Origin: Desulfobacula sp.
GTDB lineage: Bacteria > Desulfobacterota > Desulfobacteria > Desulfobacterales > Desulfobacteraceae
Direction of reading: 5' to 3'
Assembly (NCBI GenBank): GCA_023701135.1
Contig: JAMPXP010000018.1
Location: 1-42,285 of the forward strand
Length of the DNA stretch: 42,285 nt
The notes under the pieces were generated by a model that had not been told where the DNA came from, ran no database searches, and saw only the letters and a program-made list of their open reading frames with translations. The position numbers and the translations under genes are program-made. Below, one piece after another: positions 5,412 to 37,271 of this stretch. How positions within the stretch are numbered: position 1 is the stretch's first letter; each line of letters opens with the position of its first letter.

Positions 5412-6827
<1,416 letters not shown>

Positions 6828-6868
6828 CTATAAAGCTGTTTTCTTAAATTAAGCATATCGATTAAAAT

Positions 6869-7762: not shown

Positions 7763-7825
7763 ATGATCTACCTTTCAAGCCTGTTGTTAATGAATCATTA
7801 AACTAAAAAAATCCAAAAATACCCA

Positions 7826-9340: not shown

Positions 9341-9891
9341 TAGACATTCTCACCTTTTTTTAATGTTTCTCTCAAATTCATCAGCTGGGTTTTTACGCTG
9401 CCATCCAGAACAAGATCGCCTATTTTTGTAACCACACCCCCAATGAGACTTGGATCCTGCTCCACCTTCAGAACAATATTTTTTCCGACTTTTTTCGACA
9501 ATGCCTCTTTGATTTTGCTTACCGCATCTGATGACAGCTCAGTGGCGGAAACGATACTGGCCTTGACAACCCCTTTGAGTTCATCAGCCAGATCTTTATA
9601 ATATGAAGCGATTTCACGCAGGAAACCAATACGGCCCTTATCAAACAAAAGCGTTAAAAAAGACTTCATGATGGCGGACAGGTCCGTTGCAGCCAATACA
9701 GCCTGCAGAACTCTTTTCCGGTCATTCTTGTTATATAAGGGATTGGTTAACGCCTTTTCAAAATCTTTCTGGGAATCAAAAAGTCCGACAACCGATTCAA
9801 GCTCGGCATTATACTGTTCAGCCCTGCCGTCTTCCTGGCCGATAAGAATCAATGCTTTGGCATAACGCCTTGAAACCGTTAGATTTTTCAT
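9340..9891 (-). CDS. atpH: ATP synthase F1 subunit delta
   Basis: A 183-residue stator subunit that joins the b/b' stalk to the top of F1. The N-terminal pattern SRRYAKALI (about 7-15) and the C-terminal [22 protein letters not shown] block (about 146-167) are typical of the delta/OSCP family. Both ends overlap neighbouring genes by one base (TAATG), which suggests tightly coupled translation from atpF through atpA. Confidence 0.96.
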
Positions 9892-10487
9892 TATGCCACC
9901 ACCTTTTTCAAATATTCATCCACAAGTTTGTCCTGATCATCCGATGAAATGGAGGCCTTAATGAGTTCTTCAGCTTTTATCATTGCTTTCTCGGCAATTT
10001 CCTGCTGAAGTTTTGTTTTTGCAGACTTGAATTCCTGCTCAATATTTCGTTTGGCCATGGCTTCAAGTTTTGCCGCCTGTGCTTCAGCTTCGGCAAGAAT
10101 TCTGATTTTTGCTTCCTGGCCCTGTTTCATGTATTCTTCAAGAATCTTTTTGGATTCCTGATCAAGGCTTTTAAACCTGGCCTGATATTCGGCCAGCTTC
10201 TTTTCAGCCTCTGCCTTTTTCTGTTCAAGGGCTTTGATCTCATCTTCAATGCCTTTGGCACGGGATGAGAAAAACTCAGCCACTGGTTTTTTGGCAATAA
10301 AAAACAAGGCAATGATCAGCACACCGAAGTTTAACACCTTGGCAGTATCAATGCCGAGCCATGCATTGTGAACTCCGCCGTGTCCTCCGTCGGAAGACGC
10401 AAGAGCAATGCCGCAAACAGAAAAGAGAAGAGCAGCGGCACAGCCGATGAACTTCAGGCATTTTTGAATTGTTCTTTTTTCTTTCAT
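9891..10487 (-). CDS. atpF: ATP synthase Fo subunit b
   Basis: A 198-residue peripheral stalk subunit. An N-terminal hydrophobic segment that looks like a signal peptide (CAAALLFSVCGIALASS) precedes a second membrane segment (VLNFGVLIIALFFIA), then a long Ala/Glu/Lys-rich helix that dimerises with b'. The ATG at 10487 shares one base with the atpF' stop (TGATG) and follows GGAGGG; a TTG two codons upstream is a weaker alternative. Deltaproteobacterial b subunits often carry this extra N-terminal segment. Confidence 0.93.
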   Translation of the reverse strand: MKEKRTIQKCLKFIGCAAALLFSVCGIALASSDGGHGGVHNAWLGIDTAKVLNFGVLIIALFFIAKKPVAEFFSSRAKGIEDEIKALEQKKAEAEKKLAEYQARFKSLDQESKKILEEYMKQGQEAKIRILAEAEAQAAKLEAMAKRNIEQEFKSAKTKLQQEIAEKAMIKAEELIKASISSDDQDKLVDEYLKKVVA

Positions 10488-10918
10488 CAGCAAGCCCTCC
10501 CTAATATCTTTTCACCGATCGCTTTGGCATAACCGTCAACCTCCGCTTCCAGCGCCTTTCGGGCCTGCTCAGTTTCCTGGGCCACCTGCTTTTTGATGTC
10601 AGCAAGATTGGCCTGAGCTTTCTTGTTAATCCTGTCGATAATTTCCTTTTCTTCCTTTGATGCTTCTTCAATAAAGGCTTCTTTACTCTTTAAGCCTTTT
10701 GACCGGGCCTGTTTCAATCCGCTATTGTATGCATCTTCTCCGGCAACAAGGTCGCTCTGGGCTTTTTCAGCCCCATTTTGCATCCCTTCAATTTTTGCCT
10801 TTCTTTCAAGAAGAACATTACGGATTGGTTTGTACAGAACCAGGTTGAGCACAAAAAGCAGAACAAGGAAATTGATCATCTGATATACCAGGGATATATC
10901 AGGAATCACAGTTATCAT
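10487..10918 (-). CDS. atpF2: ATP synthase Fo subunit b'
   Basis: A 143-residue second b-type stalk subunit: one N-terminal membrane segment (LVYQMINFLVLLFVLNLVLY, about 10-29) followed by a Lys/Glu/Ala-rich helix. Together with the next gene it gives a b/b' heterodimer as in photosynthetic bacteria and many Desulfobacterota. It is the first gene of the F1 operon, with a strong GGAGGGG ribosome site. The a and c genes (atpB, atpE) are absent from the window and must lie elsewhere. Confidence 0.92.
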   Translation of the reverse strand: MITVIPDISLVYQMINFLVLLFVLNLVLYKPIRNVLLERKAKIEGMQNGAEKAQSDLVAGEDAYNSGLKQARSKGLKSKEAFIEEASKEEKEIIDRINKKAQANLADIKKQVAQETEQARKALEAEVDGYAKAIGEKILGRAC

Positions 10919-21069: not shown

Positions 21070-22482
21070 CTAGGGTTCAATCCGGATGGACGGGTACAAG
21101 CCCATATATTTTCCCGTTGTATAGGGCTGGATCAGATTAAAGGAAATATTCTGGTCATCCTGGGCATGGCCCCGGTTTTCTCCCTTATGGAACCTGGCCC
21201 CGTTCTGCAGCAGGATATTACTGATTCTTTTCCGGAATGCATCCAGAAAGATGGAGCCCTTGCCTGAAAAGGTCATTTTACCGATTCTTAATGTATCCCT
21301 TACCTCGGCCAGTCCGTCCAGGGAAATGGTATGGGTCTCAATATCTTCCTCTGACCGGATAAAACCCCAGATTAGATGCTCGGCCGGGATCCGGATGGAC
21401 ACCTGGGGGTCGATGATGGTATGGGGCATCACAATGCATCGCTCTCCGATTTCTATCATGGCATCGGGTTTGCCGTTTAAGAAGGAATTGAATCCGACAA
21501 AGGTGCCGTGCCCCATGAGGCAATGGATGATTTTCCCGCCATGGGCCGTAATATTCATTCCTTCCAGGGTTGAGTCAATGATATAGGTATTTTCCTGGGC
21601 GTTGGAGCCGTCTCCCATGACGGCATTTTCAAGGAATGCCCGCTGGGAAACCAGTACATTTTCACCGATCCTTGTCTTTCCCTTGATCACGGCATACCGG
21701 TTCACGGCCGAGGTGGGAGGAGCTTCATAAAGCTCGAGATTCATCACTTCAAAGAGTCTTTCATAATCCTGTTCCCGTTCTTTTACAAAATCATAGATCA
21801 GGCCCCGGGGTTGGTGGGAGGCGTTGACTCCCACGAAATTATCCAGGATACTCTTTTCAAATCGGTATTTGAATTCAAAATTCGGATGACGGATCCAGAC
21901 GGTTCCCGGATCAATCTTGCGGTGAAACAGCTCCCCTGCCTGGACATAAGCAAATTCACCCAGAATGCAGGAGTGAAGATTCATGAGATCCACAGTGGAA
22001 AAGGCACCCAGAAAGCACCCTTCCAAGGTGGACCCGTGGATATTGGCATGATGGGCGGATATGGTATTGTGGATACTGAATTCTTCAGGGTTTTCCAAAT
22101 TGTGGGAATTGCTGTGGACCAGCGTTTTATAAAGCAGGCTATCTCTGATGACAATCTTTTCATCTTCCACCAGGGGAATGTTTTTGGCGCTGCGAATTTT
22201 ATCCCCAGCCCGTTTCAATTCATCGCCCCGGACATCGCTTTTATAAATGGCAGACCGGCTCACCTGGCATTTGCCCAGAAAATAACTGCCGGCAATATTG
22301 GAATGTTTGAAATCAAAAAAAATCGGATGCTGGGAGGTTATGCCGTAAAATGCATAGAATTTCAGCATCTTTTCATGGTCAAGAGCATCCCTTACAAAGG
22401 GCTCCGTATCAAAATCAAATTCGCTCAGATTAACGTTCACACGGCTGATGATTCTGTCGTTGAGTAAGGTCAACTGGTCCAT
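21070..22482 (-). CDS. Left-handed beta-helix (hexapeptide-repeat) protein, function unknown
   Basis: A 470-residue soluble protein with at least two blocks of hexapeptide-like repeats: about 130-175 (SIHNTISAHHANIHGSTLEG) and about 260-380 (RIGENVLVSQRAFLENAVMG and IIDSTLEGMNITAHGGKII). Such repeats build the left-handed beta helix of acyl- and nucleotidyl-transferases. An N-terminal region (1-100) and the long insertion (about 185-250, including VGVNASHQPRGLIYDF) match nothing I recognise. No nucleotidyltransferase motif is present. The ATG has a perfect AAGGAGA site. It is transcribed after the Ehr cluster on the same strand, 24 bases downstream of it, so may be cotranscribed. Confidence 0.8.
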   Translation of the reverse strand: MDQLTLLNDRIISRVNVNLSEFDFDTEPFVRDALDHEKMLKFYAFYGITSQHPIFFDFKHSNIAGSYFLGKCQVSRSAIYKSDVRGDELKRAGDKIRSAKNIPLVEDEKIVIRDSLLYKTLVHSNSHNLENPEEFSIHNTISAHHANIHGSTLEGCFLGAFSTVDLMNLHSCILGEFAYVQAGELFHRKIDPGTVWIRHPNFEFKYRFEKSILDNFVGVNASHQPRGLIYDFVKEREQDYERLFEVMNLELYEAPPTSAVNRYAVIKGKTRIGENVLVSQRAFLENAVMGDGSNAQENTYIIDSTLEGMNITAHGGKIIHCLMGHGTFVGFNSFLNGKPDAMIEIGERCIVMPHTIIDPQVSIRIPAEHLIWGFIRSEEDIETHTISLDGLAEVRDTLRIGKMTFSGKGSIFLDAFRKRISNILLQNGARFHKGENRGHAQDDQNISFNLIQPYTTGKYMGLYPSIRIEP

Positions 22483-22506: not shown

Positions 22507-23250
22507 CTATTTAAAAAACCTCAGCAATGCATGAAGATTGGTCAAAGGATGGGGCGGGCAACCGGGAATGAAAAGGTCCACCGGCAGGATTTTGTCCAGG
22601 CCCTCGGTGATCTCCGGGCTGCCGGAAAAAGGCCCGCCCGTGAGGGTGCAACTGCCCACGGCAATGACCACCTTAGGATCTGGAACCGCTTCATAGGTCT
22701 GTAAAAGGGCGGTTCTCATATTCCGGGACACCGGCCCCGTCACGACGATCCCGTCGGAATGGCGGGGAGAGGCCACAAAATTAATACCAAACCTGGCCAG
22801 GTCAAAGAACGGGGTGGCCAGTACATTCAAATCCGCTTCACAGGCATTGCAGCCTGCGGCAGATACCTGGCGCAGTTGAAGGGAGCGGCCGAAGAGACTT
22901 TTAAAATGCTGCTTGGAATGTCGGGCCAGGTCCGGCAGATCTCCGGCCGTCAGCAAATGTTCTTTTTGAGCCGTTGCAATCTCAAAATCTCCGGTGAACC
23001 GAACAAATTCTCCCTGGGAGATCTGCTCACAGGTGCCGCAAAAAATACACCGGCCCATGTCTATCTTTTTTTGCTGAACATCAATGGCATCCTGGGGACA
23101 GGCATTGGCGCAGATTTCAACCCATTCCGGGGAAGCATCCTGCCGCACCAAGGGTTTTCCCCGGTATCGGCCAAAAACGGCCGGCTTTTCCTTGGGATAG
23201 CTGCAGGTCCTGTATCCCTGCTCATATCTGTTTTTAAGTACGCTGAACAT
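22507..23250 (-). CDS. Ehr complex small subunit: ferredoxin-NuoB/HycG-like fusion
   Basis: A 247-residue cytoplasmic electron-transfer subunit. The N-terminal third resembles the HycF/HyfH ferredoxin (SYPKEKPAVFGRYRGKP) but keeps ligands for only one 4Fe-4S cluster: Cys68, Cys71, Cys74 and Cys51 before Pro. The remainder is a NuoB/HycG-type small subunit with cluster ligands in CNAC (134-137), GSC (Cys201) and PGCPPHP (Cys231), the site equivalent to complex I cluster N2. In hydrogenase-4 and formate hydrogenlyase these are separate genes; here they are fused. It is the last gene of the operon. Confidence 0.88.
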   Translation of the reverse strand: MFSVLKNRYEQGYRTCSYPKEKPAVFGRYRGKPLVRQDASPEWVEICANACPQDAIDVQQKKIDMGRCIFCGTCEQISQGEFVRFTGDFEIATAQKEHLLTAGDLPDLARHSKQHFKSLFGRSLQLRQVSAAGCNACEADLNVLATPFFDLARFGINFVASPRHSDGIVVTGPVSRNMRTALLQTYEAVPDPKVVIAVGSCTLTGGPFSGSPEITEGLDKILPVDLFIPGCPPHPLTNLHALLRFFK

Positions 23251-23277
23251 GGCATCTACCCTCTTTATGGTGTTTTA

Positions 23278-24783
23278 TCAAAGGTCAAATCCGCAATAGG
23301 ACAGGTTAAAACTCTTGTTATTCAGGGGAAAATCCGATATTCCCGTATTCCGGAGGGCCATGGCAAGCCCGTTCCAATTGTGGAAGGACGGATCCTTCAC
23401 CTTATACCGTAAAATCTTCCCTTCATTGTCCGTTAAGAGGGCATGGGACACTTCCCCCCGCCAGGCCTCATTCAGGGTCACGACAAAGCTCAACGGCGCC
23501 AGGTTAAGATCGGAAGCCGCCACTGTTTTTGTTTCAACAGAACTGCCGATCAGGGACTGGATGATGCCCATGGACTGATGGATTTCATCGTACCGAACCC
23601 TGGCCCGGGCATAGACATCGCCCGTGGTTTTCTTGTTTTCAGGAATACCCAGCTCACCATAATGCTCCGTGGGAAAACAGCGCCGGACATCATAAGCAAG
23701 TCCGGAGGCCCTTCCGGCCGGTCCCACAAGGCCCAGGTGATCCGCATCGGCCGGGCTGACACAGCCGCAGTCTTCAAACCTGGCCCGGACCGTGGACGCA
23801 AGAAAAAGAAGTTCCAGGACATGTTCAACCTGGGGCTTTAATTCTTTGAGCCGTTCATTAAGGGTTTTCCGAACCTCATCGGAAAGGGTGAACCTCACCC
23901 CGCCCGGGCGGACCAGGCCTTTGCCGAACCGGTTGCCGCAGAGAAGAAGGCTGAGATTTAAAAAATCCCCCCGGAGCCTGCCGAAATAATTGGCCGGCGG
24001 CAGGAAGGCCACATCCCCGCTCAGGGCCCCGAGGTCCCCGATGTGGTTGGCCAAGCGCTCCAATTCCAAGGCAATGGAGCGAATGATCCTGGCCCCCTTA
24101 TCCGGTTGAACAGGGGTAAGGGCTTCAACGGCCTGGGCCATACAGAGGCTGTGACCGATGGTGGTGTCTCCGGCAATATTCTCTGCCAGGATGGGCAAAC
24201 GCTTGGCCTGAACCCCCTGTAAAAGCTGTTCTACGCCCCGGTGCTGATACCCAAGCTGGATTTCCAGGTGAAGAACTTTTTCTCCAATGCAGTTAAACCG
24301 GAAATGGCCGGGTTCGATGACGCCCGCATGGACCGGCCCCACGGCAACCTCATGGATTTCATTGCCTTCCACCTGATAATAGGTGTAATTGCCCGGAATA
24401 TCCTCTTTATAATGATTGCCGAACACATCCTTTGCCTTGTGGTAATTGGGATGATACCGGACCATTTTCAGCCAGGGATGACCCTCGGGCCGCAGGCCGA
24501 ACTGTTCGGCCATCTCCCTTTCAAACAGATGGAAAGGTTCAGAAACTTGGGTCAAAGACGGATAGGATCCAGGCGCGTCACATCCGGCCACCATGAGCCG
24601 GTCGGTTCTGAGCACGGCCAGAAGCTTGAGGGATGTCCCGTCCGGGTAAGCGAAAAACTGAACCACTTTTCCGCCCTTTCCCACTATTTCCAGAGCGTTC
24701 TCCCGGAAATCGGCAAAGGCAAGATGGGGTATTTTTCTTCGATCCAGTTTTTCACCATTGGAAATATTCAAAAATGCATTCAT
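23278..24783 (-). CDS. Ehr complex large subunit: NuoCD/HycE-like, NiFe ligands lost
   Basis: A 501-residue fusion of a NuoC-like domain (about 1-115) and a NuoD/hydrogenase large-subunit domain (about 140-501), as in HycE/HyfG. The blocks EVAVGPVHAGVIEPGHFRF and LGYQHRGVE are conserved. The proximal NiFe motif (RxCGxCxxxH) is replaced by ENIAGDTTIGHS (201-212) with no cysteine. The C-terminal DPCxxC motif is replaced by a sequence ending SYCGFDL with one cysteine. The protein therefore should not bind NiFe and is not a hydrogenase. The quinone- or unknown-substrate site is open. It starts three bases after the preceding gene. Confidence 0.92.
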   Translation of the reverse strand: MNAFLNISNGEKLDRRKIPHLAFADFRENALEIVGKGGKVVQFFAYPDGTSLKLLAVLRTDRLMVAGCDAPGSYPSLTQVSEPFHLFEREMAEQFGLRPEGHPWLKMVRYHPNYHKAKDVFGNHYKEDIPGNYTYYQVEGNEIHEVAVGPVHAGVIEPGHFRFNCIGEKVLHLEIQLGYQHRGVEQLLQGVQAKRLPILAENIAGDTTIGHSLCMAQAVEALTPVQPDKGARIIRSIALELERLANHIGDLGALSGDVAFLPPANYFGRLRGDFLNLSLLLCGNRFGKGLVRPGGVRFTLSDEVRKTLNERLKELKPQVEHVLELLFLASTVRARFEDCGCVSPADADHLGLVGPAGRASGLAYDVRRCFPTEHYGELGIPENKKTTGDVYARARVRYDEIHQSMGIIQSLIGSSVETKTVAASDLNLAPLSFVVTLNEAWRGEVSHALLTDNEGKILRYKVKDPSFHNWNGLAMALRNTGISDFPLNNKSFNLSYCGFDL

Positions 24784-24785
24784 GG

Positions 24786-26207
24786 CTAAAATCCTCCGCC
24801 AATGGCCGATATCGCATCAATAATGGTTTGATGAACCGTGTCCGGGATAGAAATACACAGCGCCAGGGAAGTCAACAGCAGGACATACTGGGGCCAGACA
24901 AGGCCCGGCTTTTCTTTGAGCCGGATGGTCGCCTTTGAATGATCAAAGGATATTTTCATGACCTGGTTGGCAAACCCGGCAAAGATCACGCAGAGACTCA
25001 GGATAAAGATCCCCGCCATGGCATAATGCTTTCCCCTGAAGGCCCCCAGAATAATAAACAGTTCACCGATGAAGATCCCGAAGGGCGGGAAGCCTGAAAT
25101 TCCGGCAAACCCGGCAAAAAAGGCCAGAAAGGTTTTCGGCATGAGGGTGATGAGGCCCCCTGTGTTTTTGATGAGCCGGTTTCCATATCCCAGCAGAATA
25201 TTACCAGCCGACAGGAAAAGGGAGGACTTGATGAGGCTGTGATGGATCATGCAGATGACGGCCCCGTATACCCCTATCCCGCCGATACCGGTGCCAAAGG
25301 CGATGATGCCCATGTTTTCAATGCTGGAATAGGCCAGCATCCGTTTATATTCGTTCTGCCGGATAATAAAGGTGGCGGCGGCCAGGATGGACATAAGCCC
25401 GAAGACCATCAGGATTATCCCGGAAAAATCGCCAAGCCCTGCGGCATGCATGATTTTATTGGTCTTGAATATGCCCAGATAGGCGCAGTTCAGGAGCACC
25501 CCGGAAAAGAGGGCCGAAGCCGGTCCGGGGGCCTCGCTGTGGGCATCGGGAAGCCAGGTATGCATGGGGGCCAGTCCCATTTTGGTTCCGTAGCCCACCA
25601 GGATAAAAATAAATCCGGCTTTAAGCCAGAAGGGGTCCAGTTTCCCGGCAACCCCGGTGATGGCTGAAAAGGAAAGTACCGCATTCACATTCCCGATATC
25701 CATGGACAGGGTAATGAGGACGGACCCGAGAAGAGCCATGGCGATTCCCACGGAGCAGATGAGTACGTATTTCCAGGTGGCCTCCAGGGAGGCTGAAGAC
25801 CGGTGGGTATAGATGAGGGGGGCGCTGGCCAGGGTGGTGGCCTCGATGGCGATCCAGAACACCATGATATGATCGGATACCGTGACCATGGACATGGTGG
25901 ACAAAAACAAGAGCATGAACCCGGTAAAGACGTTTTCCGCCTGGAGTTCTCTTTCCTTCAGATAGGACACCGCATAAATGGAAATCAGAAAAAACAAAAA
26001 AGAAATGACCAAAAGAGACAAAAGGCCCTCCGGTGTCACGGAGAAATAGCGGTTAAAAACAGCTTCGGGCCTGTTGTTCCACAAAAAAAGGGATAGGATC
26101 AGATGAAGTGCCCCGGTTCCCACGAGAAGCCACCGGCCCAGGGATTTTGGGAGGAAAAAAGCCAGGATGCCAGCGACCAAAGGTGTTAGAAAGATAAGTT
26201 CAACCAT
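24786..26207 (-). CDS. Ehr complex antiporter-like membrane subunit (HyfF/NuoN-like)
   Basis: A 473-residue, about 14-segment membrane protein of the Mrp antiporter/NuoL-M-N family. Key charged positions are visible: Glu in WIAIEATTLASAPLIY and Lys in GYGTKMGLAPMHTWLPDAH, the proposed ion-translocation residues. A strong GGAGGAGCC ribosome site precedes the ATG, eight bases after the HyfE-like gene. It should pump protons or sodium when driven by the soluble arm. Confidence 0.92.
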   Translation of the reverse strand: MVELIFLTPLVAGILAFFLPKSLGRWLLVGTGALHLILSLFLWNNRPEAVFNRYFSVTPEGLLSLLVISFLFFLISIYAVSYLKERELQAENVFTGFMLLFLSTMSMVTVSDHIMVFWIAIEATTLASAPLIYTHRSSASLEATWKYVLICSVGIAMALLGSVLITLSMDIGNVNAVLSFSAITGVAGKLDPFWLKAGFIFILVGYGTKMGLAPMHTWLPDAHSEAPGPASALFSGVLLNCAYLGIFKTNKIMHAAGLGDFSGIILMVFGLMSILAAATFIIRQNEYKRMLAYSSIENMGIIAFGTGIGGIGVYGAVICMIHHSLIKSSLFLSAGNILLGYGNRLIKNTGGLITLMPKTFLAFFAGFAGISGFPPFGIFIGELFIILGAFRGKHYAMAGIFILSLCVIFAGFANQVMKISFDHSKATIRLKEKPGLVWPQYVLLLTSLALCISIPDTVHQTIIDAISAIGGGF

Positions 26208-26215
26208 GGCTCCTC

Positions 26216-26860
26216 CTATTCCTTTAATGATCTCAGATGGGCTGTGTCCACATCATCAAAGGTTTGTTTGATATTCTGAAGAATAACGGCCATGATCATG
26301 ACCCCGGCCAGGATATCCAGCAGGATGCCGAACTCAACAATGTGGCGGGCCCGGACCGATATGGTGGTTCCCAAGAGATAGATCCCGTTTTCCATCATGA
26401 TATAGCCCAGAACCATGGCAATGGCGTTTCTCCTGGCCATGAGCAGAAACATACCGGTGACCAGAAGGGCCATGGCCGTGGGAAAAAGGAGGGTATAGTC
26501 TTTAATGGCCGGGATATTCAATTGCCGGCTGATCCAGGTGGCGGCCACGATCAGCAGAAGCCCGCAGATGATGGATGCATGATAACCGACAATGGGCTCC
26601 ACCTCCCTTTTGATATTCACCCGGTTGATGGCCTTATAAATGCTCATGGGAATAATAATACCCCGGATGGCCAGGGTGGCCAGGGTGAACACAATGCCTC
26701 CGGCCGTCATGTCATGGCCCACAAAAAGAGGAACCAGGGAAACCACAATGCCCTGAAAGCCAACCACCGATATCAGACGGGGCAACCGGCTGGAGCCAAA
26801 GGAAAACAGGACGGAAAGCAAAACCAGGGTTAAAATGGTGTCAACTTGAAGTATGCTCAT
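26216..26860 (-). CDS. Ehr complex membrane subunit (HyfE-like)
   Basis: A 214-residue membrane protein with six to seven hydrophobic segments. Length matches HyfE of hydrogenase-4, whose C-terminal part resembles NuoK. The segment LGYIMMENGIYLLGTTI, with a buried Glu, is the NuoK-like hallmark. I chose the ATG at 26860, one base after the preceding stop and downstream of GGAG, over a longer frame that would begin inside the HyfC-like gene. Confidence 0.88.
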   Translation of the reverse strand: MSILQVDTILTLVLLSVLFSFGSSRLPRLISVVGFQGIVVSLVPLFVGHDMTAGGIVFTLATLAIRGIIIPMSIYKAINRVNIKREVEPIVGYHASIICGLLLIVAATWISRQLNIPAIKDYTLLFPTAMALLVTGMFLLMARRNAIAMVLGYIMMENGIYLLGTTISVRARHIVEFGILLDILAGVMIMAVILQNIKQTFDDVDTAHLRSLKE

Positions 26861-26861
26861 T

Positions 26862-27776
26862 TTAGATAAACTCCAATGTGATGATGGTTGCAAAAAAGGC
26901 CAGGGCAAAAGAGGTCAGAACAAACTGGGGAACCTTATCCATCCTGTACCGGGCCATGACCGATTCCGTTACCCCAACAGCCACGCTCACAAGGACAAGA
27001 CCTGAAAAATAGAACGCAAAGGTGAGGGGAATATTCAGGTCAAAGGGCAGGATCATCCTTGAAATCAGGGTGGCATAAAAAAACAATTTGCAGAATGATC
27101 CCAGCTCAATGAGACCAAAATCAGGACCGCTGTGGTCCAGGACCATGACTTCATGGATCATGGTCAATTCAAGATGAGTGGCGGGATCATCCACCGGAAC
27201 CCTGGAATTCTCTGTCAACAAAATGATAAAAAATGCAACCACAATAAACAATAAGGGCGGACCGGCCAAATGCCACAGCAAAAAAGGATTCTCTCCTGAA
27301 AAATAGGCAGACAGGGAAAGTTCACCGGTAAGGCGGTAAAACAGAATCAGGATCATGAAAAAGGCGGCTTCACAGATAATCGGGAAATATGCTTCCCGGG
27401 CCGCACCCATGCCTTCAAAGGGAGAGGCCGTATCCATGGCCGCGGAAATGGTGAAAAACCGGCCCAGCCCCAACAGATAAAGAACGACAATCACATCCCC
27501 GTGAAATGAAAACACAGGGGCATGCCCGGCAATGGGCAGAAAAAGAAGGACGGTCAGGGCCGAGCCAAGAGAAACGATGGGTCCCAGCTTGAACATCAGG
27601 GTTGTGCTCCTGCTGTAAACCGATCCCTTTTGTATCAGCTTGATCAGGGTATAATACTGGATCAGGACCGGAGGCCCTTTTTTCCCTCCAAAAAAGGCCT
27701 TTACTTTCAGGATGATCCCTGAAAAAAAGGGCGCCGTCAGAACAGCCAGAATAAAAAGAAGAATGGATTCAATCAT
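26862..27776 (-). CDS. Ehr complex membrane subunit (HyfC/NuoH-like)
   Basis: A 304-residue membrane protein with about eight segments that connects the soluble arm to the pump modules, as NuoH does in complex I. The conserved block GMGAAREAYFPIICEAAFF and the loop ENSRVPVDDPATHLELTMIH match the HycD/HyfC group. The start is the ATG at 27776 (MIESILLF), preceded by AAAGG 14 bases after the upstream stop; the longer frame starting at 27869 would overlap the previous gene. Confidence 0.92.
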   Translation of the reverse strand: MIESILLFILAVLTAPFFSGIILKVKAFFGGKKGPPVLIQYYTLIKLIQKGSVYSRSTTLMFKLGPIVSLGSALTVLLFLPIAGHAPVFSFHGDVIVVLYLLGLGRFFTISAAMDTASPFEGMGAAREAYFPIICEAAFFMILILFYRLTGELSLSAYFSGENPFLLWHLAGPPLLFIVVAFFIILLTENSRVPVDDPATHLELTMIHEVMVLDHSGPDFGLIELGSFCKLFFYATLISRMILPFDLNIPLTFAFYFSGLVLVSVAVGVTESVMARYRMDKVPQFVLTSFALAFFATIITLEFI

Positions 27777-27790
27777 CGGTTTACCTTTAA

Positions 27791-29749
27791 TTATATAAAA
27801 AAGAGCAATAATACAATGGCCAGCAGGATATATCCGATATACAGATGAATATCCCCGTGCTGGATCCATCTCAGCTTTTCAAACACCAACAGGATGGGAT
27901 CAACCACGAGCTTGTTCATATGGAGCCCGGCAATATCGTTGATGTGGCTTTTATAATGGGTTTTTACAGGGAACCGGCCCTGAATGGCAGGGTGTTCTTC
28001 GGACAAGGGGGCCACGGGCCGGAAAAAATCCAGAATAAAGGACGCATAGGAGGACCCGGTATACTGCATTTTAACCGTGGGCTGGGTAAACCCGCATCCC
28101 CAGGTACCGGACGCGGCAATGGGTTTGTTCCGGTAAAAAAAAGACCGGATCAGGGCCACCAGGATCACTACGGCAAAGAAAACAACGGCGGCAAAGCTGA
28201 GATTGCCGGCAATGGTCATGACCGGCTGGAACCCGGTGGGTTCCAGCCCAAGGCCCAGGGCGGCAACGGCCCGAAGCGGCAAAAGGATGATGACACCGGG
28301 GAAGAGGCCTATCAACACACAGGCAGCGGCCAGGACCACCATGGAAACCAGCATGGTCGCTCCTTTTTCCGTTGCCTTTTCAGCGGCCCGGGTTCTGGGT
28401 TCTCCTTGAAAGACAACTCCCACCACCTTGGTAAAACAGGCCAGGGCCAGGCCCCCGATAACCGCAAGACTGATGATGGCCACAATGCTCATGATGAAAT
28501 CGGAGGTTTCCAGGGCCAGGCCTTTGAATCCCCCCAGGTAAATTAAAAATTCTCCCACAAATCCATTCAGGGGAGGCAGACCCGATATGGCCAGGGAACC
28601 GATAATCACCGCCGTTCCCGTGATTTTCATACGTTTCAGCAATCCGCCCAGGGCATCAATGGAGCGGGTACCAGTTTGATGCAGGACCATGCCGGCTCCC
28701 ATGAACAACAGGCTTTTAAAAACAGCATGGTTGAGAACATGTAAAAACCCTCCCGTAAACCCCAGGACGGCCATGGCCGGGTTGCCCGACGATACACCCG
28801 TCATCCCGATACCCATTCCGATAAGAATAATACCGATATTTTCAACGCTGGAATAGGCCAGCAGACGCTTCAGATCATGCTGGCCCAGGGCATAGACCAC
28901 TCCCAGTATCCCGGACACGGCCCCGGCAATGATCATCACCATGCCCGGCAAGGGAGTATGAAGATCCAGCAGGGTATAGATGCGGATCATCCCATAGATA
29001 CCGGTCTTGATCATGACCCCGGACATGACGGCAGATATATGGCTGGGAGCGGCCGGATGTGCAAAGGGAAGCCAGACATGGAAGGGGAACACCCCGGCCT
29101 TGGACCCGAAGCCGATAAAGGAAAAAAGAAAGATCAGGATTTTCATGGTTTCAGGCATCCGGGTCATGGGGCCCAAGGCAAAATTTCCCGTATGGGCGTA
29201 GATCAATGCAAAGGCGGCCAGGATGAACATGGCGCCCACATGGGAAAACACAAAATACAGATACCCGGCTTTTCGATTGTCCGAAGCCTCATGGTTGTAT
29301 ATGACAAGGAAAAACGAAGACAGGGACATGGCTTCCCAGGACAGCATAAAGGCAAGAATATTGGAAGCGGTAATGACCAGGGCCATGGAAGCGATGAGAA
29401 CACTGAAGAAAAAATAATTGACCCCTATCCTTACCGGTTTTTTTTCATGGGCCATATAGTGGAAACTGTAAACTGAGGACAAAAGACAGATACCAAACAC
29501 GGCAACAAGAAAAAATGCGGAAAGCCCGTCCATTTTAAATGACAGGGAGAAAAGCGTCAGATATTCAAAACTTCTTGCGGCGGTGACGGAATGGATGAGG
29601 GCTGAACTTGCATTGATCAAACCCAAAAGACAGCCGATACTTAAAAGAAAAGCCGTAATGATTCTGCCGGACTTCGCCTGTCTTGCAAAGCAAATGGAAA
29701 AAAAACCCCCGGTCAGAATGATCAGTATGGAAATGAAAAATTGACTCAT
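27791..29749 (-). CDS. Ehr complex antiporter-like membrane subunit (HyfB/NuoL-like)
   Basis: A 652-residue member of the NuoL/HyfB family and first gene of the six-gene operon. About 14 core segments carry the conserved Glu in SWEAMSLSSFFLV and Lys in GFGSKAGVFPFHVWLP. The C-terminal extension (about 480-652) ends in a last membrane segment (YIGYILLAIVLLLFFI) and may correspond to the lateral arm of HyfB-type subunits. GGGGA precedes the ATG. The gene is divergent from the DASS transporter gene. Confidence 0.92.
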   Translation of the reverse strand: MSQFFISILIILTGGFFSICFARQAKSGRIITAFLLSIGCLLGLINASSALIHSVTAARSFEYLTLFSLSFKMDGLSAFFLVAVFGICLLSSVYSFHYMAHEKKPVRIGVNYFFFSVLIASMALVITASNILAFMLSWEAMSLSSFFLVIYNHEASDNRKAGYLYFVFSHVGAMFILAAFALIYAHTGNFALGPMTRMPETMKILIFLFSFIGFGSKAGVFPFHVWLPFAHPAAPSHISAVMSGVMIKTGIYGMIRIYTLLDLHTPLPGMVMIIAGAVSGILGVVYALGQHDLKRLLAYSSVENIGIILIGMGIGMTGVSSGNPAMAVLGFTGGFLHVLNHAVFKSLLFMGAGMVLHQTGTRSIDALGGLLKRMKITGTAVIIGSLAISGLPPLNGFVGEFLIYLGGFKGLALETSDFIMSIVAIISLAVIGGLALACFTKVVGVVFQGEPRTRAAEKATEKGATMLVSMVVLAAACVLIGLFPGVIILLPLRAVAALGLGLEPTGFQPVMTIAGNLSFAAVVFFAVVILVALIRSFFYRNKPIAASGTWGCGFTQPTVKMQYTGSSYASFILDFFRPVAPLSEEHPAIQGRFPVKTHYKSHINDIAGLHMNKLVVDPILLVFEKLRWIQHGDIHLYIGYILLAIVLLLFFI

Positions 29750-30005: not shown

Positions 30006-31478
30006 ATGAATGATGCAACAATGACCCTGGAAGGCGCCCGCATTGACTGGAAAAGAATATTTTTCCTGGTTCTCGGGGTGGCACTGTTTTTTATCATTTA
30101 TTATTGTCCGCCCTGGCCCGATGCCATTGATCCGGCCGGCAAGCATTTCACTTTGAGTGTGGAAGGAAAAGGCGCCCTTGCGGTTTTTGCCCTGGCCGCC
30201 ACCTGGTGGATCTTTGAAGTCCTGCCCATCGGCGTTACCGGCATTGCCATCGGCGTCGCCCAGGCCATGTTTCTCATCCGTAAGCCGGAGGTGGCTTTCA
30301 AGGATTTTATGGATCCTTCCGTGCTTTTTATCCTGGGCTCCGTTGTTATCGGACTGACCTTTACCAAGAGTGGTCTGACCAAGCGCATGGCCTATAAGAT
30401 GCTCTCCATCGTCGGTGAAAAGACCAGCATGATCTATCTGGGATGCTTTGTCATGACTGCGGCCCTGACCCATCTCATGGCCCATACGGCGGTGGCGGCC
30501 ACCATGTTCCCCCTGCTTCTGGCCATTCATTCCTTTTATTCAGATGAAGACAAACCCACCAAATTCGGCAAGGGCCTTTTCATCGGCATGGCCTATGTGG
30601 CCGGGGCCGGGTCCATCATCACCTTGCTGGGTGCGGCCCGGGGCGCCGTGGCCATTGGTTTTTTCAAAGAAATGACGGGAAGAGAAGTCAGTTTTTTTGA
30701 ATTATCCTATTATATGGCCCCCATCGGCTGGCTCATGGTCTTCATCATCTGGGGCCTCATCATGGTTCTGTGTAAACCTGAAAAAGCCGTTATCCACGGT
30801 CTCAAGGCAAAGGCCACCAAAATGTATGCCGACCTGGGAGGCTGGGGAAGAAAGGAAATCCTGACCCTGACCATCACCCTGGCCGTCATTGTCCTCATCG
30901 GTCTCAAAAACTTTGTCCCGGCCCTGCAGACCATTGACAAAACCGCCATTCTTCTAACTTCCACCCTTTTGTTTTTTATTTTGAATATTCTTGATATCAA
31001 TGATCTTGAAGCCATCCCCTGGAATATCATCCTGCTTTTCGGCGGGGCCATGTCCATCGGGTTCTGCCTCTGGCAGACCAAGGCGGCCGAATGGCTGGCC
31101 GTCAACTGGCTTCAGCTCTTTGCCAATGCGCCGTCTGTGGTCTTCATACTGGGCATGGCCTTTTTTGTCATGATCATGACCAATTTTATCATGAATGTGG
31201 CCGCCATTGCCATTTCCCTGCCCGTGGCCCTGGTCATTGCCCCCTATCTCGGGGTGGCCGGAGAGGTCATCTTTTTCTCGGCCCTCATGACTGCGGGTAT
31301 GCCCTTTATCCTTCTCATCGGTGCGGCCCCCAATGCCATTGCCTATAATTCCAACCAGTTCACGGCCGGAGAATTTTTCAAATTCGGCATCATCGCCAGT
31401 ATCATATTGATGATCGTGGTCTGGCTGGCCGTAGCCGTCATCTGGCCCATGATGGGAATGCCTATTTTACTGAAATAA
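30006..31478 (+). CDS. DASS/SLC13-family anion:sodium symporter
   Basis: A 490-residue inner-membrane transporter with 11 or more hydrophobic segments. The layout (EVLPIGVTGIAIGV, DPSVLFILGSVVIGL, then a second inverted half beginning near 310) matches the divalent anion:Na+ symporter family, which carries dicarboxylates, sulfate or related anions. The two clamshell SNT motifs are altered to AHT (159-161) and MNV (396-398), so substrate cannot be assumed. Sulfate uptake is plausible given the sulfate-reducer-like context and nearby TauE/SafE gene. AAGGAG lies 12 bases upstream of the ATG and better fits a five-codon minicistron that overlaps the start. A CBS protein follows. Confidence 0.85.
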   Translation: MNDATMTLEGARIDWKRIFFLVLGVALFFIIYYCPPWPDAIDPAGKHFTLSVEGKGALAVFALAATWWIFEVLPIGVTGIAIGVAQAMFLIRKPEVAFKDFMDPSVLFILGSVVIGLTFTKSGLTKRMAYKMLSIVGEKTSMIYLGCFVMTAALTHLMAHTAVAATMFPLLLAIHSFYSDEDKPTKFGKGLFIGMAYVAGAGSIITLLGAARGAVAIGFFKEMTGREVSFFELSYYMAPIGWLMVFIIWGLIMVLCKPEKAVIHGLKAKATKMYADLGGWGRKEILTLTITLAVIVLIGLKNFVPALQTIDKTAILLTSTLLFFILNILDINDLEAIPWNIILLFGGAMSIGFCLWQTKAAEWLAVNWLQLFANAPSVVFILGMAFFVMIMTNFIMNVAAIAISLPVALVIAPYLGVAGEVIFFSALMTAGMPFILLIGAAPNAIAYNSNQFTAGEFFKFGIIASIILMIVVWLAVAVIWPMMGMPILLK

Positions 31479-31521: not shown

Positions 31522-32079
31522 ATGAAAGATAAAAAAGTCAAAGAAATCATGATCGCCCTGTCCGACTATGCCACCGTGTCAGAAGAGGATACCCTTGCCT
31601 CTGTCATACGCACGCTTAAAAAAGCCCGTGAGGATAAAAAATACACGCACAAGCACCGGGCCGTGCTGGTGTATGATAAGAATAAAAAAATCGTCGGCAA
31701 AGTCAGTATCCGCTGCATTCTGCAATCCCTTGAGCCCAAATACTGTCATATTCAAAATCCCAACGGCCACGAAAACATTGGATTGTCCAGATTCGGTTTC
31801 AGCGATGACTTCCTGAATTCCATGGTCAAAAATTTCTGCCTCTGGGATGAAAGCCTGGAAGAGCTGGTAAAACATGCGTCCGCATTAAAAGTCAAGAATA
31901 TCATGTACACCCCTTCCAACGGGGAATATGTGGATGAAGAAGCCTCTGTTGCAGAGGCGGTTCACCAGTTCATCCTGGGATGTCACCAGTCCCTTTTGGT
32001 GACTAAAGATAAAAAAGTAACCGGGGTTTTGCGCCTGGTGGATATGTTTGAACTGGTCAGCGAGGCCCTTGAAAAATAA
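31522..32079 (+). CDS. CBS-domain protein
   Basis: A 185-residue soluble protein with a pair of CBS motifs (about 5-70 and 120-183), separated by a middle segment with HENIGLSRFGFSDD. CBS pairs usually bind adenine nucleotides and act as energy sensors. The gene is 43 bases downstream of the DASS gene with its own AAGGA site, so it probably modulates that transporter or a downstream process. No catalytic domain is present. Confidence 0.85.
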   Translation: MKDKKVKEIMIALSDYATVSEEDTLASVIRTLKKAREDKKYTHKHRAVLVYDKNKKIVGKVSIRCILQSLEPKYCHIQNPNGHENIGLSRFGFSDDFLNSMVKNFCLWDESLEELVKHASALKVKNIMYTPSNGEYVDEEASVAEAVHQFILGCHQSLLVTKDKKVTGVLRLVDMFELVSEALEK

Positions 32080-34250: not shown

Positions 34251-37200
34251 TTGAAGTTCAGGCACCTGTTTTTCGACAAGCGCGACCATGATCTGATCCG
34301 GATTGTTAATTCCGTCTATGATTCCGGAAAGACCCTTGGATATACACGAAAACTCTATTATCCTTTTTTTCATCCCCTGGGAATCAAGGAACTGGCTGAA
34401 TCCAAGGGCCTTCGCACGGCCTATGCCATCGCTTCCCTCCTGGAGTCCATGGAACGGGGGGTGATCGAAAACCGGCTCCAGGCCCTCCAGGGGCTTAAAG
34501 ATGAAATCCTGAATACCACCGCCGGTTCCATGCCCAAGAATACGGCCAGGGTTCTCCTTCAGATCATGAAAGAACTGGTCAGGGCCAGGGGCAACGACGC
34601 CCTTCAGCTTGAACTGGCCCATAGCTTCCGTATGGCGGCCTTTGGCAAACCCAGGGTGATCCGGCGGTTGCTCAAACACTACCACCTCCTGGAAATGCCT
34701 GAAGAATGGGACCAGATTGCTTTTGACGACCATGTTCACGATGCCAATACCTCGGGTAGAAAATCTCCCACCCATCTCATCATGGATGCCTGGATCAAGG
34801 GTATCCGCCGGCTCAGGGTGATTTACTATCATTGTATTGAACCCCGGTTTGCCACGGAATTGATTCAGGCCGCCCGGATCATGGAAATCGACCTTCGGAT
34901 CGGCATTGAATTCTGGGCCCGGTACCGTGACCGTTATATCTCCTTTATCTGGGTATCACGGGGCCTGCCTGATACCGAAGCCTTTCTCTGCTTTCTGGCC
35001 GAACCCCATGTGGTGTCGTTCATGGAACAGGGCAAGACCGTTCTGAAATATCAGGAAAGATATGTCTTACGAATCCTTGCAAGCTTTAACCGGACCTATA
35101 TGGAAGACATGTGCCGGGATCTGGGCATTGATCTTCAACCCTTGCAGCCTGAAGATTTCCTGAAATTTGCTGCGCCGGGACTGCCCTCCATTCCCCATCT
35201 GGGAGAATATATCCATTCCCTTGCGGTGAAGGCCATGTCCCAGCGCCTCAAAGATCTGAGCCAAACCTATGAAACAGCAGACCCCGCTCAAAGGGAGGGC
35301 ATCAAAGACCTGGTCGAAAGAATGAATTCCTTTTCGACCAAGGATGTTATTGTCAACTATTTAACTCCCCTGAAACACCCGGAAGTGCCCCATCCTTTTT
35401 CCCTCAGTATTGATGCCGATATCCCCCATCGTCTCAAACTGGATTTTAAAACCCTTCTTTTTGAAGTCAGGAAACTTCGCCATGATTTCAGGATCACCCT
35501 GAAACTCGGCAATCTCAAACCTGAAGATGTGATTGAAATCCTGTATGATGGAGACGGATATGTTAACCGGCTTGAAATCATCAATTTAAAGGATTTTGCA
35601 TCCGATGATGCTGAATCCCTTTTCTCCATCAATGTGCTCCAGAAATCCATCAACTCCGGAAGCCTGTTAAAACTCAAACGGGTGGTCCGGCAGATCATCC
35701 TGGCCGTAGAAAAAACCGATTATCCGGATAAAGAGGACCGGTTGAAAAAATTGCTCAATATTCTCCATGATATTGATGCATTAAAAGACATGTACACCAT
35801 CCGGCCCCTTAAGTCCAGGATTGGCAGCGATTCAACCGGGAAGGCCCATCAGACTTACGGCATGGGGTTTTGCATCATCCCCACCCTTTCTGCAAGAGCC
35901 CGGGCGGAAATTCGTAAGAATAAGGTGGATCGACTGATTTTGCCCGCAAAGATGAATGTCAGCCGACGAATGACCACCTTTGCATTGAATGAGATCTCCC
36001 CCATCCTGAAATGGGTTATAAAAAAATTCCGGTGGCTTCCCGGTTTGGAACAAATTCTGCCGGTCAAGACAAGGGAATGGGTATTTGAATCCTTTGCCCT
36101 GGACATGAGGTCCCTTGGAAATGTTGTAACCCTGAGCGGAATTCAGAAAGAAGCCAAAAACAATCTGAAACTGGACCTGTCGGAAAAAGAAAAACAAATA
36201 TCTCCTGCTTCCTGGCAAAACCTGAACACAAAACTGAAAAACTCTTTGAAAATTCTGGGAGGGTTTATCCCGGCCTTTCTTTGTTTCTATCTGACCAAAG
36301 ACTGGTGGTTCCTGGCCTATTTCGGGGCTGTGATCTGGTTCGGTATTACCGGCTTTCGGGTCATTCTGCAATCGGTCCTGGGAGGCGGCGGCATCAACCG
36401 GTCTTCTCTGACCAAATGGAATGATTATGTGAGCTGGGACCGGTTGACGGATTCTCTTTTCTTTACAGGCTTTTCCGTGCCGATCCTGGATTATCTTGTC
36501 AAAACCCTTATCCTGGACCGGACCTTCGGGGTCACCATGTCCACCAGCCCGGTCCTTCTGTATTCCGTCATGGGACTGGCCAACGGAATTTATCTATCAT
36601 CCCATAATGTCTTTCGCGGCCTTCCCAAAGGAATGATCACGGGCAATTTTTTCAGGAGCATTCTTTCCATTCCCGTGGCCATCCTGTTTAACAGCATCAT
36701 CGGCGCAATTCTAACGTTTTATCATGTGCCGTCCATTGAAGGCATTCTCCAGAAATGGGCCGCCGTTATTTCAAAGGCCGCATCTGATACGGTGGCGGGC
36801 CTGATTGAAGGCACGGTGGACCGATTCTCCAACCTGGACTTGAGAAAAAGGGACATTGGGAAGAAATTTTCAGACCTGTTTGAAACCTATACCAAACTTG
36901 AACTCCTCTTCCCCGAAACGGAAGAAATGAAAATACTTGAAAAACCGGAAAAACTTTTTATCAGCAGGAATTCAGAGGTCAGGGATCTTGCCGTCATGAT
37001 CATTATCAGTGCCCTTGATCTTTTTTATTTCTGGATGTACCTGCCAAGAGCTCGGATGACCATGCTGGATATGGTTTCCCGGCTGACTCCGGAAGAAAGA
37101 ACCCTGTTTATTCAATCCCAGAAAATCCTCGAACATGAACAGTATATCAGCCGGCTTTTTGTGGATGGAATCCTGGGGAAAAATTTTTCAAAGCCCCTGT

Positions 37201-37271
37201 CATTTTATCTTACAAATTATCAGAATTATCTGTCCGGTATCCAGAAAATCGATTCGGATCCTTTCCAATAA
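34251..37271 (+). CDS. Large membrane protein with PHP-like N-terminal domain, function unknown
   Basis: A 1006-residue protein I do not recognise as a named family. Residues about 158-225 resemble the start of a PHP metal-phosphoesterase domain: an H-x-H pair (His161, His163) in FDDHVHDANTSGRKSP, then YYHC (His194) and GIEF (Glu220). This resemblance is my inference and the domain may be degenerate. Residues about 250-650 are soluble and mostly helical. From about 665 there are several membrane segments (IPAFLCFYLT, FLAYFGAVIWFGITGF, SPVLLYSVMGLANGIYL, SIPVAILFNSIIGAIL), with another near 920. The TTG start has a weak purine-rich ribosome site; no upstream in-frame start exists. It sits between the activator operon and the kinase operon. 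Confidence 0.75.
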   Translation: MKFRHLFFDKRDHDLIRIVNSVYDSGKTLGYTRKLYYPFFHPLGIKELAESKGLRTAYAIASLLESMERGVIENRLQALQGLKDEILNTTAGSMPKNTARVLLQIMKELVRARGNDALQLELAHSFRMAAFGKPRVIRRLLKHYHLLEMPEEWDQIAFDDHVHDANTSGRKSPTHLIMDAWIKGIRRLRVIYYHCIEPRFATELIQAARIMEIDLRIGIEFWARYRDRYISFIWVSRGLPDTEAFLCFLAEPHVVSFMEQGKTVLKYQERYVLRILASFNRTYMEDMCRDLGIDLQPLQPEDFLKFAAPGLPSIPHLGEYIHSLAVKAMSQRLKDLSQTYETADPAQREGIKDLVERMNSFSTKDVIVNYLTPLKHPEVPHPFSLSIDADIPHRLKLDFKTLLFEVRKLRHDFRITLKLGNLKPEDVIEILYDGDGYVNRLEIINLKDFASDDAESLFSINVLQKSINSGSLLKLKRVVRQIILAVEKTDYPDKEDRLKKLLNILHDIDALKDMYTIRPLKSRIGSDSTGKAHQTYGMGFCIIPTLSARARAEIRKNKVDRLILPAKMNVSRRMTTFALNEISPILKWVIKKFRWLPGLEQILPVKTREWVFESFALDMRSLGNVVTLSGIQKEAKNNLKLDLSEKEKQISPASWQNLNTKLKNSLKILGGFIPAFLCFYLTKDWWFLAYFGAVIWFGITGFRVILQSVLGGGGINRSSLTKWNDYVSWDRLTDSLFFTGFSVPILDYLVKTLILDRTFGVTMSTSPVLLYSVMGLANGIYLSSHNVFRGLPKGMITGNFFRSILSIPVAILFNSIIGAILTFYHVPSIEGILQKWAAVISKAASDTVAGLIEGTVDRFSNLDLRKRDIGKKFSDLFETYTKLELLFPETEEMKILEKPEKLFISRNSEVRDLAVMIIISALDLFYFWMYLPRARMTMLDMVSRLTPEERTLFIQSQKILEHEQYISRLFVDGILGKNFSKPLSFYLTNYQNYLSGIQKIDSDPFQ

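What the first reader, a model, noticed from the sequence alone, without database searches (positions are those of the whole stretch)
22507..29749. Six-gene Ehr-type complex: a hydrogenase-4/complex I relative without NiFe ligands
Gene content and order (HyfB, HyfC, HyfE, HyfF, HyfG, HyfI-like) match hydrogenase-4 and formate hydrogenlyase membrane modules, but the large subunit lacks cysteines at both NiFe motifs (ENIAGDTTIGHS at 201-212; the C-terminus has one lone Cys). No hydrogenase maturation or formate dehydrogenase gene is nearby. Energy-converting hydrogenase-related (Ehr) complexes are recognised as a class, but their electron donor and acceptor are largely unknown. This is a compact candidate for ion pumping driven by an unidentified redox couple, possibly ferredoxin and a quinone-like acceptor.
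Basis: partly seen in the sequence, partly recalled or inferred. Interest (0 to 1): 0.75.

Follow-up and report, generated by a model that had tools for sequence, protein, structure and literature searches.

The report
Nickel-free hydrogenase-like ion pump (Ehr)
A sulfate-reducing bacterium carries a membrane complex built like a hydrogen-making enzyme and like respiratory complex I, but its metal-binding cysteines are replaced by other strictly conserved residues and one iron-sulfur cluster is gone, so it is probably a ferredoxin-driven ion pump whose electron acceptor is still unknown.

Summary
In detail: window 22507-29749 (minus strand) is a six-gene Ehr operon, and EhrL has A, T, S and G at the four NiFe cysteine positions. 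Ehr is a known class without an assigned reaction; this is a member with variant features.

(1) The emptied site is conserved, not decayed: AGDT in 80 of 80 close loci; D206, K490 and G498 in 58 of 58 aligned Ehr rows.
(2) The sixth gene is a HyfH-HyfI fusion. In 83 of 83 clade-1 relatives its ferredoxin domain lacks ligands for one [4Fe-4S] cluster and keeps the other; 24 of 28 sister-clade proteins clearly keep both.
(3) The site matches neither hydrogenase, complex I nor MBS.
(4) The host has no NuoD; in its family Ehr is in 57 of 86 genomes, NuoD in 7.
(5) A beta-helix protein of unknown function lies within 19 kb of Ehr in 12 of 12 near-complete family genomes, 10 of them one genus.

Best reading: a ferredoxin-driven ion pump passing electrons to a membrane acceptor, perhaps menaquinone. 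Donor, acceptor and ion are inferred, not shown.

The parts
27791..29749 (-). EhrB (HyfB/NuoL-like antiporter subunit, 652 aa)
   Evidence: PF00361, PF00662; NF005086 hydrogenase 4 subunit B 1.7e-169, below its cut-off; conserved E139, K217, K248, H337, H341, K345
26862..27869 (-). EhrC (HyfC/NuoH-like membrane anchor); start more likely near 27776
   Evidence: PF00146; conserved E159, E167, E220, R223, D227, E234, E240 in 33 of 33 rows
26216..26908 (-). EhrE (HyfE, NuoK-like); start more likely near 26860
   Evidence: PF00420, NF008556 4.5e-23, below its cut-off; conserved E173, E192, D198
24786..26207 (-). EhrF (HyfF-like antiporter subunit)
   Evidence: PF00361, NF005044 1.8e-99, below its cut-off; conserved E122, K209, H216, K288, E297, K327
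23278..24783 (-). EhrL (NuoCD/HycE-like large subunit) without NiFe ligands
   Evidence: PF00346, PF00329; best PDB relative HycE 7z0s_E by sequence and fold; A204/T207/S495/G498 at the ligand positions
22507..23250 (-). EhrS (fused HyfH-type ferredoxin domain and NuoB/HyfI-type small subunit): ligands for one ferredoxin-domain cluster plus a four-Cys proximal cluster
   Evidence: NF009053 at 1-105, NuoB models at 132-244; cysteine patterns
21070..22482 (-). LbH: left-handed beta-helix protein, 24 bp after EhrS, linked gene of unknown function
   Evidence: PF18776; solved relative 3c8v 'putative acetyltransferase', E 3.2e-209; near Ehr in many relatives
30006..31478 (+). DASS (SLC13) anion transporter, divergent neighbour; possible association only
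   Evidence: PF00939; only near-full-length PF00939 match in the host; near Ehr in 10 of 34 and 6 of 20 relatives' stretches, sets overlapping
31522..32079 (+). CBS-domain protein beside the transporter; possible association only
   Evidence: PF00571; CBS-like match in 15 of 34 flanked loci

Best explanation
An Ehr complex of a distinct clade. Shown by sequence: no NiFe ligands; a conserved replacement site; a four-Cys proximal cluster motif; conserved charged residues in the membrane arm; ligands for only one cluster in the ferredoxin domain of EhrS. Inferred: a soluble low-potential donor, most likely reduced ferredoxin, docks on EhrS; electrons pass the remaining ferredoxin-domain cluster and the proximal cluster to a membrane-soluble acceptor, most likely menaquinone, protonated through E157 in the remodelled pocket; this is relayed through EhrC and EhrE to two antiporter-like subunits that export ions. 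It would partly stand in for complex I, which the host lacks. The reaction may be reversible.
For: Site conservation. E157 aligns with the proton-transfer Glu HycE E193 / MbhL E21, and EhrS keeps the CxxC proximal motif at hydrogenase spacing (roles from passages). Membrane-arm residues conserved. No flavin, formate dehydrogenase or extra ferredoxin subunit family among the 34 scanned window ORFs, which fits a soluble donor. No NuoD in the host; Ehr in 57 and NuoD in 7 of 86 family genomes. Host has menaquinone genes, Nqr and an Rnf-like protein.
Against: Complex I's quinone residues H38 and Y87 correspond to I156 and G205, and the canopy Asp to N493. Menaquinone markers do not separate Ehr-positive (52 of 57) from Ehr-negative genomes (27 of 29), and G348, rated 100% complete, has Ehr but neither marker. 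Ehr is reported in Riflemargulisbacteria genomes without a quinone pathway (PMC6349859, passages). Ehr and NuoD do not exclude each other (4 of 57 against 3 of 29). No donor, acceptor or ion has been measured.
Confidence: 0.45

Rival explanations
1. It works like MBS: ferredoxin-driven reduction of a sulfur compound at the proximal cluster, coupled to ion pumping.
For: Sulfate reducers handle sulfur compounds; complex I quinone residues are absent in both MBS and Ehr.
Against: The MBS small-subunit loop is three residues shorter, freeing one iron, and MBS lacks the MbhL E21 Glu (passages). EhrS has CxxC at hydrogenase spacing and EhrL keeps E157 in 58 of 58 rows.
Confidence: 0.1
2. It runs mainly in reverse: the ion gradient drives reduction of ferredoxin by quinol or another carrier.
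For: Complexes of this superfamily can be reversible (general knowledge); the parts are the same.
Against: Rnf-like, Nqr and Ech-type enzymes also present in the host could serve this; nothing in the sequence shows direction.
Confidence: 0.15
3. It couples a formate dehydrogenase or another unlinked oxidoreductase to the membrane, as proposed for FDH-Ehr.
For: Proposed for Riflemargulisbacteria and Saganbacteria (passages); Ehr raised on formate in Geobacter proteomics (passage).
Against: No formate dehydrogenase family among the scanned window ORFs; EhrS has fewer, not more, clusters for wiring to a partner. A distant gene was not searched for.
Confidence: 0.12
4. A vestigial, non-redox remnant; the membrane arm serves only as an ion exchanger or nothing.
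For: A 2026 Geobacter evolution paper calls Ehr nonfunctional because it lacks the NiFe centre (PMC13194489, passage).
Against: 14 Ehr-specific positions identical in 58 of 58 rows across three clades, and cluster ligands kept.
Confidence: 0.06
5. A true H2-evolving group 4 NiFe hydrogenase.
For: Gene order; a six-gene Hyf-like cluster was reported as an H2-evolving hydrogenase in Desulfotignum phosphitoxidans (PMC4046663, passage).
Against: No cysteine at any of the four ligand positions; the same in 8 of 8 Desulfotignum-titled loci.
Confidence: 0.01

Closest known systems
Ehr complex (Geobacter sulfurreducens GSU0739-0745; also Riflemargulisbacteria, comammox Nitrospira)
   Same: Hydrogenase-4/complex I-like gene set, large subunit without NiFe ligands (passages)
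   Different: This clade has ligands for one, not two, ferredoxin-domain clusters in EhrS and a linked beta-helix gene. I did not fetch the Geobacter proteins.
Formate hydrogenlyase / hydrogenase-4 (HycE, Hyf)
   Same: Closest solved relative of EhrL by sequence and fold; proton-transfer Glu and canopy Arg kept
   Different: No NiFe ligands, canopy Asp replaced by Asn, protein ends where the hydrogenase C-terminal extension would start; no HyfD or HyfA gene in the operon
Respiratory complex I (NuoCD, NuoB, NuoH, NuoL)
   Same: Same fold and membrane-arm plan
   Different: No tandem N2 cysteines, no H38/Y87 equivalents; no NADH module in the operon
MBS (Pyrococcus furiosus)
   Same: NiFe ligands lost in a hydrogenase-derived ion pump
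   Different: MBS keeps two of four cysteines and has a shortened proximal-cluster loop (passages); here none is kept and the loop is full length

Membership tests
Ehr complex | Group-4-hydrogenase-like large subunit without the four NiFe cysteines | tested here: met
   A204, T207, S495, G498; 80 of 80 close loci with AGDT
Ehr complex | Antiporter-like, NuoH-like and HyfE-like membrane subunits in one gene cluster | tested here: met
Ehr complex | Grouping with characterised or named Ehr proteins | not tested
Group 4 NiFe hydrogenase | Two CxxC NiFe ligand pairs in the large subunit | tested here: not met
Respiratory complex I | Quinone residues H38 and Y87 (Nqo4) and tandem N2 cysteines | tested here: not met
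   I156 and G205; CNACE instead of tandem CC
MBS | Shortened proximal-cluster loop and no MbhL E21 equivalent | tested here: not met
   Loop at hydrogenase spacing; E157 present
Ferredoxin:quinone oxidoreductase (function) | Measured ferredoxin-dependent quinone reduction | not testable with these tools
   Needs biochemistry; genome co-occurrence was not discriminating

The most novel reading that the evidence does not exclude
Clade-1 Ehr is the main complex-I-like enzyme of Desulfobacteraceae-type sulfate reducers: a ferredoxin:menaquinone ion pump with a third kind of acceptor site in the complex I superfamily (a conserved Asp206/Lys490/Asn493 pocket in place of NiFe or of the His/Tyr quinone site) and a shortened electron wire, the outer ferredoxin-domain cluster having been dropped more than once in the superfamily.
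Probability: 0.35. Interest if true: 0.75.

Novelty: new variant of a known kind. Interest (0 to 1): 0.5.

Why it matters
Ehr complexes are a recognised but functionally unassigned branch between hydrogenases and complex I. The conserved replacement residues and the pared-down iron-sulfur chain give concrete targets for asking what such a pump reduces. In the host's family Ehr is in 57 of 86 genomes and NuoD in 7, yet the main text of a 2025 Desulfobacteraceae overview holds no word beginning with Ehr (PMC11887813), and a 2013 Desulfotignum paper reports a six-gene Hyf-like cluster as an H2-evolving hydrogenase (PMC4046663, passage). If Ehr feeds ferredoxin electrons into the quinone pool, energy budgets of marine sulfate reducers change.

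Tried and rejected
Chance or sequencing error: rejected, the substitutions recur in 80 of 80 close loci. Hydrogenase, MBS-like and complex-I-like sites: rejected on residues. Menaquinone co-occurrence as a test of the acceptor: run and not discriminating; futalosine genes were not found in 21 of 86 genomes, 14 of which have MenD over its cut-off. Ehr as an exclusive replacement of complex I: NuoD is rare, but 4 of 57 Ehr-positive against 3 of 29 Ehr-negative genomes show no exclusion. The AlphaFold model of LbH was poor (mean pLDDT 65.5) and was not used; the solved relative 3c8v was found by sequence. The paper search for EhrL/EhrS mostly returned health-record papers. Searches listed nothing that I recognised as describing the single-cluster variant; the library holds open-access papers only, the listings were capped, and Coppi 2005 and Marreiros 2013 were not read (seen as citations).

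The check changed these points: the EIIA-type regulator count is 10 of 18 clade-2 stretches, not 10 of 20; four proximal-motif misses proved to be CNSCE or CNCCE; a fourth group without NiFe ligands also shows the one-cluster pattern, so the direction of change is less certain.

Full report
Observation. On the minus strand of 22507-29749 lie EhrB, EhrC, EhrE, EhrF, EhrL and EhrS, followed after 24 bp by a seventh gene, LbH. Pfam and NCBIfam give HyfB/NuoL-like, NuoH-like, HyfE-like, HyfF-like, a 30+49 kDa fusion and NuoB-like. The sixth gene is more than HyfI: residues 1-105 match the formate hydrogenlyase iron-sulfur subunit model NF009053 (3.7e-17, below its cut-off) and residues 132-244 match NuoB. 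The genome has 4.8 Mb in 42 contigs.

The emptied NiFe site. EhrL aligns best with E. coli HycE (7z0s_E) by sequence and by fold (TM 0.89; model mean pLDDT 90.6 but low at residues 498-501). HycE C241, C244 and C531 fall on A204, T207 and S495; the fourth ligand column holds G498, where 5 of 5 hydrogenase rows have Cys; C497 is not a ligand position. In the 80 close loci AGDT is present in 80 and NKSxNLSYCGxD in 77; of the other three, one frame ends at the contig end, one is broken and one is masked there. In an alignment of the window and 26 of these 80 (down to 66% identity) both motifs are invariant at the ligand positions. A wider alignment has 69 rows; before it I dropped 68 of the 80 close loci, the self-hit loci and loci holding the same gene twice. 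It holds 58 Ehr rows of three clades, 4 rows of a further group without NiFe ligands, 5 NiFe hydrogenases and 2 NuoD. Fourteen positions past residue 140 (V148, A153, G154, I156, G159, D206, D250, W441, D464, F485, N489, K490, Y496, G498) are identical in 58 of 58 Ehr rows and seen in none of the seven hydrogenase and NuoD rows; F163, G249, N493 and S495 in 57 of 58. C497 itself varies (48 Cys, 9 Ser, 1 Ala). This is the pattern of a remodelled, working site.

What the site keeps and lacks. Kept: E157, which aligns with the proton-transfer Glu HycE E193 / MbhL E21; R442 (canopy Arg); the R358/E400 pair; and the CxxC proximal motif at hydrogenase spacing (roles from passages of PMC9474812 and PMC7684303). 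Lacking: complex I's H38 and Y87 (here I156 and G205), its tandem cysteines, and the canopy Asp (here N493). MBS lacks the Glu and has a loop three residues shorter; neither holds here. So the site is none of the three known types. EhrL ends where the hydrogenase C-terminal extension begins, as NuoD does.

A missing cluster. EhrS was found in 111 of 116 loci examined: 83 of clade 1 and 28 of clade 2. Numbering the eight ferredoxin cysteines in order, clade 2 has all eight in 24 of 28 (23 by pattern, L114 by eye); L144 and L151 have small indels and may keep them; L148 and L154 have lost those of one cluster. In clade 1 (77 by pattern, 6 by eye) the second is missing in 83 of 83, the eighth in 82 (L063 has one) and the first in 79 (L088, L091, L135, L136 have a Cys near it), while the fourth to seventh, enough for one [4Fe-4S] cluster, are kept in 83 of 83. 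By the usual ferredoxin wiring the kept cluster is the inner one, N6b by complex I naming (both recalled). The proximal CxxC is present throughout: CNACE or CNGCE in 79 of 83 clade-1 proteins, CNSCE or CNCCE in the other four. Against a simple story, a fourth group without NiFe ligands (L124, L125, L126, L131) also shows the one-cluster pattern in 4 of 4, and clade-3 EhrS has no ferredoxin domain at all. Clade 1 and the L148/L154 pair are separate supported groups (100/99 each), so repeated loss is the simplest reading, but the ancestral state is not settled.

Tree. All 62 rows of the Ehr clades and the fourth group lie across a 100/100 branch from the hydrogenases and NuoD; clade 1 (21 rows) has 100/99. 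The five hydrogenases do not form one group, several branches are long and the program warns that long branches meet, so deeper order is not to be trusted.

Membrane arm. In 33 rows (window plus 32 chosen loci) the lysines, glutamates and histidines expected in the antiporter-like, NuoH-like and NuoK-like subunits are conserved (93% or more). Ion translocation is therefore likely; H+ or Na+ is open.

Distribution. In 297 genomes of the phylum 237 match the EhrL profile at 1e-20, but this includes hydrogenases and NuoD, whose scores are lower. In 86 genomes of the host's family, 57 match at 1e-80 (32 of 42 of high quality; G353 only with a clade-2-like score) and 7 have NuoD over its cut-off; the host has none. 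The rarity of complete nuo sets in Desulfobacteraceae is also in print (PMC5109826, passage). The host has futalosine menaquinone genes, Nqr, an RnfC-like protein below cut-off and a hydrogenase with all four cysteines on contig 42 (L132). A menaquinone marker was found in 52 of 57 Ehr-positive and 27 of 29 Ehr-negative genomes. Of the five Ehr-positive genomes without one, four are 56-84% complete, but G348 is rated 100%. This fits a quinone acceptor without proving it.

Neighbours. In 34 clade-1 loci with enough flank, LbH is near in 24, a CBS protein in 15, DASS in 10 and none of the three in 9. In 20 further 20-kb stretches that I chose, some from the same genomes, LbH is in 16 and DASS in 6. 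In 12 of 12 family genomes of at most 10 contigs with clade-1 Ehr, LbH lies 2.3 to 18.5 kb away in differing layouts; 10 of the 12 are one genus, and G353, with only a clade-2-like Ehr, has LbH 139 kb away. LbH occurs without Ehr too (41 of 42 high-quality genomes), so it is linked, not dedicated. Its relative 3c8v is deposited as a putative acetyltransferase. None of the 18 clade-2 stretches showed LbH, CBS or DASS at the thresholds used; 10 of the 18 have a common neighbour, identified in one (L142) as an EIIA/HTH protein. DASS transporters include Na+/sulfate symporters (PMC5840216, passages).

Mechanism. Most likely soluble ferredoxin, then the EhrS ferredoxin-domain cluster, then the proximal cluster, then a membrane acceptor protonated via E157, with ion export by EhrB and EhrF. 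The wiring follows from ligands; donor, acceptor and ion are inference. Ferredoxin to menaquinone would release enough energy to pump (recalled potentials).

Known record. Ehr as a class is in print (passages). One Geobacter paper calls it nonfunctional; the conservation here argues against that for this clade. The six-gene Hyf-like 'hydrogenase' of Desulfotignum phosphitoxidans (passage) is probably this complex: I did not have that strain's sequence, but 8 of 8 Desulfotignum-titled loci lack the ligands.

Noticed in passing
Selenocysteine machinery was not searched; the one paper search listed two papers, and the passages seen of one do not describe this.
   Followed up: partly
G063 contig 1 near 634-651 kb (L118) and G153 contig 6 near 28-45 kb (L119, L147): A clade-2 and a clade-3 Ehr cluster lie within about 16 kb of each other in both genomes.
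   Followed up: no
L124, L125, L126, L131: A further group of large subunits without NiFe ligands (ERFSG, then SFGLSNAECDR or close variants) with the one-cluster ferredoxin pattern in the small subunit.
   Followed up: partly
Family genomes of genus g202: Fourteen genomes have MenD over its cut-off and no futalosine-pathway match, all in one genus, while other genera have the futalosine genes: a pathway swap.
   Followed up: no
window 34251-37271 (+): A 1006-codon ORF between response-regulator and kinase genes with no Pfam or NCBIfam match and no tblastn match in the 20 stretches.
   Followed up: partly
window 5412-10918 (-): F-type ATP synthase genes lie about 12 kb from the Ehr operon on the same strand.
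   Followed up: no
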